A stretch of 64,000 nucleotides of DNA from Natrialba hulunbeirensis JCM 10989 (GTDB taxonomy: Archaea; Halobacteriota; Halobacteria; Halobacteriales; Natrialbaceae): the NCBI RefSeq assembly GCF_000337575.1, contig NZ_AOIM01000041.1:113827-177826 (forward strand). Direction: 5' to 3'. The position numbers and the translations under genes are program-made. The notes beneath the pieces are model-generated. The model was not told where the DNA came from and did not search any database. It saw only the letters and a list, made by a program, of their open reading frames with translations. Position 1 is the stretch's first letter. Every line of letters begins with the position of its first letter. Shown piece by piece: positions 511 to 43,644 of the stretch.

Positions 511-595
511 CTATCGTAACAACGGAACCGGTTTACACACCGATCGCCGATCCATCTGGCGATCAGGTGTGCACTGACTTACAGTGGCTACTATA
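511..595 (-). repeat. 85-bp structured intergenic repeat, copy A (reverse orientation)
   Basis: The reverse complement begins CTATAGTAGCCACTG and ends with a degraded form of the partner arm seen in copies at 24178 and 39795. It has an internal hairpin, GATCGCC/GGCGATC with a 9-base loop, and a small CACTG/CAGTG hairpin. It lies between tfe and the amphi-Trp gene. Its distal arm (CTATCGTAACAACGG as read on the plus strand) carries more changes than in the other copies. Confidence 0.85.
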
Positions 596-24177: not shown

Positions 24178-24263
24178 CTATAGTAGCCACTGAAAGTCAG
24201 TGCACACCTGATCGCCAGCCGGGTCGTCGATCGACGTGTAAACAGTTTCAGTTGTTACTATAG
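24178..24263 (+). repeat. 86-bp structured intergenic repeat, copy B
   Basis: It begins CTATAGTAGCCACTGAAAG and ends TTTCAGTTGTTACTATAG. The terminal arms pair over about 18 positions with two mismatched steps. The inner CACTGA/TCAGTG hairpin is perfect, and the GATCG/CGATC hairpin has one internal mismatch. The same element occurs at 511-595 (reverse) and 39795-39880. No gene lies in it, and the surrounding 23844-24343 stretch holds nothing else I can support beyond a short palindrome. Confidence 0.88.
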
Positions 24264-39404: not shown

Positions 39405-39420
39405 GCCGGCCGCTACATCC

Positions 39421-39730
39421 GGGTGGATAGGTCGGGCAGTTTGGCCCTGCTCACTACCCGCGCTATGGTCATTAGCGGGGACCGAACACCGCGGGCGTCC
39501 GGTCAGACCGACCGGGGCCTCGGGAGCCAACGTGGAAGCCTCGTCCGTCGGGGACAGCGGTCTACGGTGGCCGTCCGCAGGGACGTCCCATCGTGGTTAG
39601 CCGGCGACAGCCCATCAGGCGCGGAAGCGAGCAGTGGACCGCCGGACACCTGTCGCTCGACGGGTCGCGGGGTGGAGAAGGCAACCGGGATTCCCCCGGC
39701 CGGAACGCCGGGCAATCGCGGCCTCCACAT
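39421..39730 (+). ncRNA. ffs: signal recognition particle 7S RNA
   Basis: A GC-rich stretch of about 310 bases without an ORF. The 5' end GGTGGATAGGTCGGGCAG pairs with GCGGCCTCCAC at the 3' end, forming the closed terminal helix of archaeal SRP RNA. The S-domain helix-8 loop is recognisable as GGAAGCGAGCAGTGGACC (near 39640), the SRP54-binding motif. The Alu-domain start GGGCAGTTTGGCCCTGCTCA is also typical. The RNA scaffolds SRP19 and SRP54 for co-translational membrane targeting. End points are estimates. Confidence 0.93.
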
Positions 39731-39794
39731 TCATACTTCATACTGCGTTCTACTCGTTCAGCACCAGCCACGATCATCGCGTTGGCCGACACAC

Positions 39795-39880
39795 CTATAG
39801 TAGCCACTGCAAGTCAATGCACACCTGATCGCACGACTGCTGTGCGATCAGTGTGTAAATCGTTGCAGTTGTTACTATAG
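39795..39880 (+). repeat. 86-bp structured intergenic repeat, copy C
   Basis: It begins CTATAGTAGCCACTGCAAG and ends TTGCAGTTGTTACTATAG. Compared with copy B, the arm base A in CTGAAA is C here (CTGCAA) and its partner is changed to match (TTTCAG to TTGCAG), so pairing is kept. The inner hairpin is GATCGCAC/GTGCGATC with a 7-base loop. It lies between the 7S RNA and the HTH-10 regulator. Confidence 0.88.
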
Positions 39881-41813: not shown

Positions 41814-42221
41814 TCACTTCGGCACGTGTTCCGTCTCTTCGATATACCGTTCAACCACTTCCTCCGACACCGCACCTGTCGTTCCCACATAGTACCCAAC
41901 CTTCCAAAATCCGCCACCCCAGAAATACGACTCCTGAATCTCGGGATACCGCTCCAGCAAGTGCTTACCCGAGTACGACTTGAACTGCCGGGCGAGGTCG
42001 GCTGGACTGTGTTTTGGGTCGCACTGGACGAACAGGTGTACGTGGTCGTCTGCAATCTCCAACGCCAGAATTTTGTGCCCGAAGTGGTCGGAAGTCTCAT
42101 CAAACAACTCTCGTACATCGTCTTCAACCACGTTGAGAACCGGGTGTCGGTACTTGGGACACCAGACAAAATGATATTTACAGGAACTAACCGAATGTGC
42201 GTGACTGCGGTACTCTTCCAT
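41814..42221 (-). CDS. tnpA: IS200/IS605 TnpA transposase (Y1 HUH)
   Basis: A 135-residue single-strand DNA transposase. The HUH motif is DHVHLFV (His60, His62) and the catalytic Tyr is in FWKVGYYVGTTG (Tyr110 or 111). The N-terminus SSCKYHFVWCPKYRHPVL is typical. It should cut and join single-stranded element ends at the flanking hairpins. It has its family's full length and no frameshift. It is divergent from tnpB across a 44-bp gap. Confidence 0.95.
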   Translation of the reverse strand: MEEYRSHAHSVSSCKYHFVWCPKYRHPVLNVVEDDVRELFDETSDHFGHKILALEIADDHVHLFVQCDPKHSPADLARQFKSYSGKHLLERYPEIQESYFWGGGFWKVGYYVGTTGAVSEEVVERYIEETEHVPK

Positions 42222-42265: not shown

Positions 42266-43570
42266 ATGGGTGAAGAAGCCACGAAGACGATCCAGACGCG
42301 GCTCCACATAGCGTCTGGTGAACGATCGTGGCTTCACGACGCCCGCCTCGCCTCACGCGAGATCTTCAACCAAACCATCCGCCTCAAACAACAAGGGGAC
42401 AATCGCACCGAGATACAGAAGGAGGTTGACCGCGACGACTTCCTACGGAACAACAAGTGCGCGGTCGTCGGCAAAGCCCTCCAAACATGGGACTCCTACC
42501 AATCACTCAAAGACTGGTGGGAGAATCAAGACGACCCCGACCGAGGGAAGCCGACGCCGCCGAGTACGGACAAATCTAGTGCCTACCCGCTTGTGATGGC
42601 GCACACGGAAGGCTACCGCCTCACCGTGAACGACAACACGAACCGCGTCCAGTTCCGCATCAGCCCGAAACCCTACAAGAAGGTGAAGGGCCATCTTCGC
42701 GGTGAGCCGGACGCAATGGACGAACTTCGAGACGCCCTCACGTCGAATGAGGTGGATATAGGACAGGCCGAACTCCTGTACCGCGATGGCGTGTACTACC
42801 TACACGTCACGGTTACACGCGAGTTCGACGTACCCGAACCCGACACCGCCGATACTGTGATCGGCGTGGACATCAACGAGCGCAACGTCGCACTCACCGC
42901 CCTTGACCGCGAGACGATGCAGACGAAAGGTACACTCGTCCTCGATTACGGACGAGTCAAGCAGGAACGCCAACGCTACCACACTATCACCACTCGCTGT
43001 CAAGAACACGGCAAAACGAGCATCCACCATAGACTCGGTGACAAGGAGGAGCGGTTCACCGAGTGGGTGTTGCATCGACTTTCCCGTGCTGTCGTGGAGT
43101 TCGCAGAGCAGTTCTCGAATCCGGTTATCGTGTTCGAGGATATGAGCGGCATCCGCGACGAAATCAAGTACGGGGCGTATATGAACCGCCGATTGCACAA
43201 ACTGCCGTTTCACAAGTTCGAGACGTTCGTCTCGTACAAGGCGACATGGCGGGAGGTTCCTACGGACACGGTTGATGCCTACTACAACTCGAAGACGTGT
43301 TCGTGCTGTGGTGAGCGTGGGTATCGGCAAGGACGGCGGTTCCGCTGTACGAACGACAAGTGTAATCTGGCGCAAGATCACGCTGACCGGAATGCGTCGG
43401 TGAACATCGCGTGGCGCGAGAAGACGAAGCTCGACGGTAATACGACGAATTACCGGACTCACAAAACCCAACCGCAGGTGCGGGTGGTGCGTCTGTCCGG
43501 GTCGGGGCGCGTAAGCCGCCCAACCTCATCCCGTTTCCTCGCGGAACAGGGAGTGCTAGCGCACGGCTGA
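42266..43570 (+). CDS. tnpB: TnpB RNA-guided nuclease (IS605 family)
   Basis: A 434-residue protein. The RuvC-like triad is complete: Asp202 in GVDINERNVAL, Glu291 in VIVFEDMSGI and Asp374 in HADRNASVNIA. The zinc finger CSCCGERG...CTNDKC lies between the second and third motifs. TnpB proteins cut DNA guided by an RNA made from the 3' end of the gene and the right end of the element. The ATG at 42266 fits the TnpB N-terminus; the upstream open frame to 42197 does not. A basic C-terminal tail (RVVRLSGSGRVSRPTSSR) is encoded over the likely guide-RNA scaffold. Confidence 0.93.
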   Translation: MGEEATKTIQTRLHIASGERSWLHDARLASREIFNQTIRLKQQGDNRTEIQKEVDRDDFLRNNKCAVVGKALQTWDSYQSLKDWWENQDDPDRGKPTPPSTDKSSAYPLVMAHTEGYRLTVNDNTNRVQFRISPKPYKKVKGHLRGEPDAMDELRDALTSNEVDIGQAELLYRDGVYYLHVTVTREFDVPEPDTADTVIGVDINERNVALTALDRETMQTKGTLVLDYGRVKQERQRYHTITTRCQEHGKTSIHHRLGDKEERFTEWVLHRLSRAVVEFAEQFSNPVIVFEDMSGIRDEIKYGAYMNRRLHKLPFHKFETFVSYKATWREVPTDTVDAYYNSKTCSCCGERGYRQGRRFRCTNDKCNLAQDHADRNASVNIAWREKTKLDGNTTNYRTHKTQPQVRVVRLSGSGRVSRPTSSRFLAEQGVLAHG

Positions 43571-43584
43571 GGGAACTACAAAAG

Positions 43585-43606
43585 CCTCGGGCCACCGCGC
43601 CCGAGG
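43585..43606 (+). repeat. right-end hairpin of the IS605-type element (probable reRNA 3' part)
   Basis: CCTCGGGC and GCCCGAGG form a perfect 8-bp stem with a 6-base loop, 14 bases after the tnpB stop. It is both the TnpA-recognised right end and, by analogy, the last scaffold stem of the TnpB guide RNA, with the guide read from flanking DNA starting after about 43612. Confidence 0.8.
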
Positions 43607-43644
43607 TTGTTTACAAGAGTCGCTGTGTGTCTTTTCGCTGCGTG

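What the first reader, a model, noticed from the sequence alone, without database searches (positions are those of the whole stretch)
24178..24263. Dispersed 85-86 bp intergenic element with compensatory changes in three copies
Copies at 511-595 (reverse), 24178-24263 and 39795-39880 share CTATAGTAGCCACTG ends and CAGTTGTTACTATAG-type partner ends. Between copies B and C an arm base changes from A to C and its partner from T to G, and the inner hairpins change as GATCGCC/GGCGATC versus GATCGCAC/GTGCGATC. Retained pairing despite base changes points to selection on a folded RNA or DNA, or to mobilisation as a MITE with hairpin ends. None carries a gene.
Basis: seen in the sequence. Interest (0 to 1): 0.66.

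Follow-up and report, generated by a model that had tools for sequence, protein, structure and literature searches.

The report
80-bp IS630-type MITE of haloarchaea
The repeated 86-base block is a tiny gene-less jumping element of salt-loving archaea (an 80-base hairpin-shaped MITE that inserts at TA within CTAG), present in dozens of copies per genome across many genera; it is a real and very widespread but unsurprising kind of parasite, and who moves it now is still open.

Summary
In detail: three 86-bp copies, and about 33 in the whole genome. The block is an 80-bp palindromic element (TAGTAGCCACTG...CAGTTGTTACTA) between duplicated TA dinucleotides, inside a preferred 5'-CTAG-3' target (C-TA-[80 bp]-TA-G). 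Close relatives carry the same loci without it: each time exactly 82 bp (80 bp plus one TA) is missing, although the target bases often differ. It is therefore a mobile element. Its two ends resemble, in matching order, the 3' and 5' ends of haloarchaeal IS630 insertion sequences of the ISNamo16/ISNpe3 type, which also use TA/CTAG. I file it as an IS630-type MITE. It occurs in 106 of 125 genomes of the family (probably Natrialbaceae) and 158 of 391 of the class, mostly at exactly 80 bp. The compensatory changes are real: the eight best-covarying column pairs among 112 distinct copies lie on or within two columns of the palindrome axis, but only one pair is individually significant against a tree-based null. 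Paired change in a palindromic transposon needs no RNA function. Open points: some genomes hold identical copies at different sites but no detectable IS630 transposase of this type, and no autonomous element with exactly these ends was found. I found no published description in the papers searched.

The parts
514..593 (-). copy A: 80-bp MITE body (TAGTAGCCACTG...CGTTGTTACGA read on the minus strand)
   Evidence: sequence; covariance model match G000:C41:114337-114422; absent in relatives G044 and G045
512..513 (.). TA target-site duplication, low side of copy A (block 511-596 reads C-TA ... TA-G)
594..595 (.). TA target-site duplication, high side of copy A
24181..24260 (+). copy B: 80-bp MITE body
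   Evidence: absent in relatives G044 and G045
24179..24180 (.). TA target-site duplication, left of copy B
24261..24262 (.). TA target-site duplication, right of copy B
39798..39877 (+). copy C: 80-bp MITE body, about 60 bp downstream of the SRP RNA gene
   Evidence: absent in relative G045
39796..39797 (.). TA target-site duplication, left of copy C
39878..39879 (.). TA target-site duplication, right of copy C

Best explanation
An 80-bp non-coding, almost fully palindromic miniature inverted-repeat transposable element (MITE). It is inserted, probably by cut and paste, at TA within a preferred 5'-CTAG-3' target, duplicating the TA, by an IS630/Tc1-mariner-type transposase supplied in trans. 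Shown here: clean insertion, TA duplication, target preference, similarity of both ends to the two ends of ISNamo16/ISNpe3-type IS630 elements, high copy number, identical copies at different sites. Inferred: that such a transposase moves it, the cut-and-paste chemistry (from published work on ISY100 and IS630), and that matched arm changes reflect selection by the transposase for matched ends and/or arm-to-arm conversion within the palindrome.
For: Empty sites for all three window copies in same-genus genomes have exactly the expected length: A, GCGGACTATATGACC in G044 against a predicted GTGGGCTAGATGACG; B, GCACTGGCCAGTTGG in G045 against GCACTGGCTAGTTGG; C, CATCCAGCATCGCAG in G045 against CACCTAGCATCGCAG. 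Of 127 copies with TA on both sides, 99 have C before and G after; the outermost bases also take other values on one side only, as target bases should. IS630 elements of 1055 bp in the same family of genomes end in TAGTAG[A/G]C..TTAGAAATAATTGCTCAC and TAGTAACCGTTAGAAC and sit mostly between C-TA and TA-G. The MITE left end matches the best IS 3' end at 17 of 25 bases beyond TAGTA (mean of shuffles 6.1, none of 20,000 reached it) and the right end the 5' end of that IS at 12-13 of 22 (p about 0.001-0.002) (best of several IS copies, not corrected for choice). The IS in L090 is identical to one annotated IS630-like ISNamo16 family, and its two ORFs match NCBI's IS630 model. 141 of 176 copies are exactly 80 bp. 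Identical copies lie at different sites in G083 and G098. About 33 copies in this genome, 106 of 125 family genomes, 158 of 391 class genomes.
Against: The ends are similar, not identical, to those of the IS630 elements found. No autonomous element with exactly these tips was found. Several high-copy genomes, among them G083 with identical copies, have no detectable DDE_3 or ORF1 relative, so the mobiliser there is unknown or lost. In this genome the four DDE_3 matches are interrupted or partial. Only one of the empty sites (A in G044) still reads TA; the others have a substitution in the target.
Confidence: 0.85

Rival explanations
1. The hairpin itself is what is selected: the copies are domesticated and act as a folded RNA (transcription terminator, mRNA stabiliser) or as a DNA cruciform bound by a host protein; mobility is only how they spread.
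For: Palindrome partners covary over nearly the whole element, beyond the first 12 bases of the tips (pairs 13-68, 20-63, 24-59, 29-53, 30-52). Stable folds, z down to -7. Mostly outside annotated genes on plasmids: 31 of 33 listed annotated records show no gene under the best match.
Against: The three window copies are not conserved at orthologous sites even within the genus. No Rfam family. Both strands fold about equally. Only one pair is individually significant against the tree-preserving null. Avoidance of genes is expected of any MITE.
Confidence: 0.08
2. A MITE moved by a transposase of another family that also uses CTAG/TA, the similarity to IS630 ends being ancestral or convergent.
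For: Recent-looking amplification in G083, a genome without a detectable IS630 relative of this type. No exact-tip IS630 found.
Against: A TA duplication with CTAG preference is the published hallmark of IS630 (PMC2170065 and works cited there), and both ends match IS630 ends of the same family of genomes in matching order. The transposase may simply have been lost.
Confidence: 0.06
3. A REP/BIME or IS200/IS605-derived (PATE-like) palindromic repeat moved by single-strand transposition.
For: Palindromic, intergenic, many copies; an IS200/IS605-type element seems to be present in the window (ORF 41814-42221 and the sot2652 RNA).
Against: True terminal inverted repeats and a TA duplication; published PATEs lack both (PMC3119063).
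Confidence: 0.01

Closest known systems
IS630-family insertion sequences of haloarchaea (ISNamo16, ISNpe3 type)
   Same: TA duplication, CTAG target, TAGTA tips, about 27-30 bp of end similarity in matching order
   Different: 1055 bp with two overlapping transposase ORFs; inner tip sequence differs (CGTTAGAA against CACTGNAA)
MITEs of Haloquadratum walsbyi (PMC3119063)
   Same: Non-coding, inverted repeats related to a transposon, intact transposase sometimes missing from the genome
   Different: IS630 is not named in the text of that paper; the sequences of its families were not available for comparison
Short mobile repeats (SMRs) of Haloquadratum (PMC3119063)
   Same: About 80-110 bp, prominent terminal inverted repeats, frequent
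   Different: SMRs make no target duplication and have no related transposon; this element has both
Stowaway and other Tc1/mariner MITEs of eukaryotes; Correia element of Neisseria
   Same: From general knowledge: short hairpin-forming MITEs with TA duplication
   Different: Different hosts and sequences; not compared here

Membership tests
MITE | Short and non-coding, too small for a transposase | tested here: met
   80 bp in 141 of 176 copies, 120 bp in 8
MITE | Terminal inverted repeats | tested here: met
   Outer 15 bp pair at 14 of 15 positions in most copies counting G-T
MITE | Mobile: clean empty sites with a target duplication | tested here: met
   Lengths of empty sites for copies A, B, C fit 80 bp plus TA
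MITE | Ends related to those of an autonomous element | tested here: met
   Similarity beyond chance to IS630 ends, not identity
IS630-derived | TA duplication within CTAG | tested here: met
   99 of 127 copies are C-TA...TA-G
IS630-derived | Mobilised by an IS630 transposase | not testable with these tools
   Needs an experiment; presence of the transposase does not follow copy number in all genomes
IS630-derived | Autonomous partner with the same tips (supporting, not strictly defining) | tested here: inconclusive
   None among about 80 DDE_3 loci, the loci around copies, or 1.06 Mb of G083; search incomplete
SMR (Haloquadratum) | No target duplication | tested here: not met
   TA duplication present
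PATE / IS200-IS605 | No terminal inverted repeats, no target duplication | tested here: not met
   Both present
Known structured RNA | Match to an Rfam family | tested here: not met
   Only SRP RNA, sot2652 and a tRNA in the window

The most novel reading that the evidence does not exclude
The whole 80-bp hairpin, not just its tips, is under selection (as a DNA hairpin used in transposition or as a functional RNA/terminator), explaining the fixed length and the covariation across genera, and it spreads with a transposase not yet identified in genomes such as G083.
Probability: 0.12. Interest if true: 0.6.

Novelty: new member of a known kind. Interest (0 to 1): 0.38.

Why it matters
One small MITE family, apparently undescribed in the papers searched and unannotated in the one N. 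magadii plasmid stretch inspected, occurs in about 40% of sampled genomes of the class and 42 of 86 genera, mostly at one fixed length. The 2012 N. magadii genome paper (PMC3403918) counted about 36 transposase genes and judged the genome perhaps only minimally affected by such elements, while this search gives 120 strand-wise model matches there, which I estimate as roughly 60 or more copies. It gives insertion markers for comparing Natrialba and relatives, and a natural experiment on how a palindromic element keeps both arms matched and amplifies where its transposase seems to be missing.

Tried and rejected
Rfam: no family. Tandem copies as a real arrangement: the pairs at G000:C12:22628/22718 and C43:79925/80015 are joined by TGNG with shared flanks, so they look like scaffolding artefacts. 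Autonomous partner: looked for among DDE_3 loci, around copies without a near right end, by tip pattern in G083 and G007, and by TATAGTA...TACTATA pairs in 1.06 Mb of G083; the one candidate (L387:12693-13575) contains a decayed MITE and a HAD-type hydrolase gene, no transposase. Phage records: no copy in that collection. Literature: no hit for the tip sequence except an unrelated paper, none for IS630 + MITE + haloarchaea.

Full report
Observation. The three copies are real and far above chance. The own genome (G000, 4.16 Mb, 48 contigs) holds about 33 distinct matches to a covariance model of the family (58 matches counting both strands of the palindrome; two apparent tandem pairs are probably assembly artefacts).

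Mobility. In same-genus genomes the flanks of all three copies are found without the element, and the junction has the length expected if 80 bp plus one TA had been inserted. For A the empty site in G044 still reads C-TA-T. For B and C the relatives read CCAG or CCGA where the insertion implies CTAG, so the target itself has changed in one lineage; CTAG is depleted here (29 seen, 70 expected in the window), which may favour such loss. Over 127 copies with TA on both sides, 99 are C...G, the rest mostly C...A, C...T or C...C. In G083 three or more copies of one subfamily, and in G098 six copies of one subfamily and two of another, are identical but have different flanks, which indicates recent movement.

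Relation to IS630. DDE_3 (PF13358) elements were collected from the family. A common group of about 1055 bp ends in TAGTAG[A/G]C[G/A]TTAGAAATAATTGCTCAC (3' end) and TAGTAACCGTTAGAAC (5' end) between C-TA and TA-G. The MITE left end TAGTAGCCACTGNAAGTCANTGCACAC is most like the 3' end and its right end, read inward, TAGTAACAACTGNAAC, is like the 5' end, above shuffled controls. The copy in L090 is identical to a plasmid element of Natrialba magadii annotated as IS630-like ISNamo16 family; its ORFs match NCBIfam IS630. In L090 and L111 such an IS has inserted into a MITE copy, at the CTAG in AACTAGTT or a similar site of the right arm. Published work gives TA duplication for ISY100 and IS630 and CTAG preference for IS630 (PMC2170065 and its reference list).

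Spread. 106 of 125 genomes of the family (26 of 29 genera) and 158 of 391 of the class (42 of 86 genera), with copies on plasmids of Natrinema, Natronorubrum, Haloarcula, Halomicrobium and others. Named contigs with an exact 31-base pattern are mostly Natrialba, Natrinema, Natronorubrum, Natronococcus, Natrarchaeobius and relatives. G045 matches N. magadii plasmid coordinates exactly, so the window is probably from another Natrialba species (inference). Length is 80 bp in 141 of 176 copies, 120 bp in 8; in copies such as L005 and L012 the extra 40 bp is a palindrome in the loop that occurs in both orientations. Counts per genome are capped and partly count both strands.

Compensatory changes. 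On 112 distinct 80-bp copies, pair 13-68 is A-T in 64, C-G in 32, G-C in 5; pair 29-53 T-A 72, C-G 26; pair 30-52 G-C 96, A-T 6, C-G 3; pair 20-63 A-T 38, G-C 30. In a home-made covariation test (G-test with background correction, null that shuffles substitutions on the tree and keeps column rates) the eight top-scoring pairs of columns lie at i+j = 81 to 83, the palindrome axis; only 13-68 is individually beyond the null (0.01 expected), and the test has little power with so few changes. It fits matched-arm subfamilies of a palindromic transposon; it does not by itself prove a functional RNA.

What remains open. Genomes such as G083, G060, G065, G050 and G063 have many copies but no detectable DDE_3 or ORF1 relative. 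G083 was scanned further: no element with these tips and a transposase in 1.06 Mb of it. The partner may have been lost, may sit in the unread part, or may be another enzyme. In the window's own genome all four DDE_3 matches are interrupted or partial, as was seen for some Haloquadratum MITEs (PMC3119063).

Prior knowledge. Archaeal MITEs are known, including in Haloquadratum and Halobacterium (PMC3119063, PMC10969869). I found no description of this element; the N. magadii genome paper does not mention MITEs. ISfinder and most subscription papers were not available, so an existing name cannot be excluded.

Noticed in passing
window 39420-39731 (+): Archaeal SRP RNA gene; MITE copy C lies about 60 bp downstream of it.
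   Followed up: partly
window 43449-43637 (+) and ORF 41814-42221 (-): sot2652 RNA (sense overlapping transcript) by Rfam, with a nearby ORF that looks like an IS200-type TnpA by eye; an IS200/IS605-type element.
   Followed up: no
G000:C12:22628-22803 and G000:C43:79854-80029 (L002, L018): Apparent head-to-tail MITE pairs joined by TGNG with shared flanks G[element]TG; likely scaffold-joining artefacts. Similar close pairs appear in L234, L246 and L282.
   Followed up: partly
L005, L012, L025 (120-bp copies): A 40-bp palindrome (GCGCGGTTCGGAGCGAG...CGCGG) sits in the loop in either orientation, as if it had inverted or inserted twice.
   Followed up: no
L090:1429-2483 and L111:935-1989: ISNamo16-type IS630 elements inserted inside MITE copies, with TA duplication in the right arm, so the MITE offers a landing site for its presumed partner.
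   Followed up: yes
L387:12693-13575 (G083 contig 5): A HAD-type hydrolase gene bounded by MITE-like tips with C-TA...TA-G; the right part is a decayed MITE, so this may be chance or an insertion into a MITE rather than a cargo element.
   Followed up: partly
window, whole: CTAG is under-represented (29 seen, about 70 expected), although it is the preferred target of this element.
   Followed up: partly
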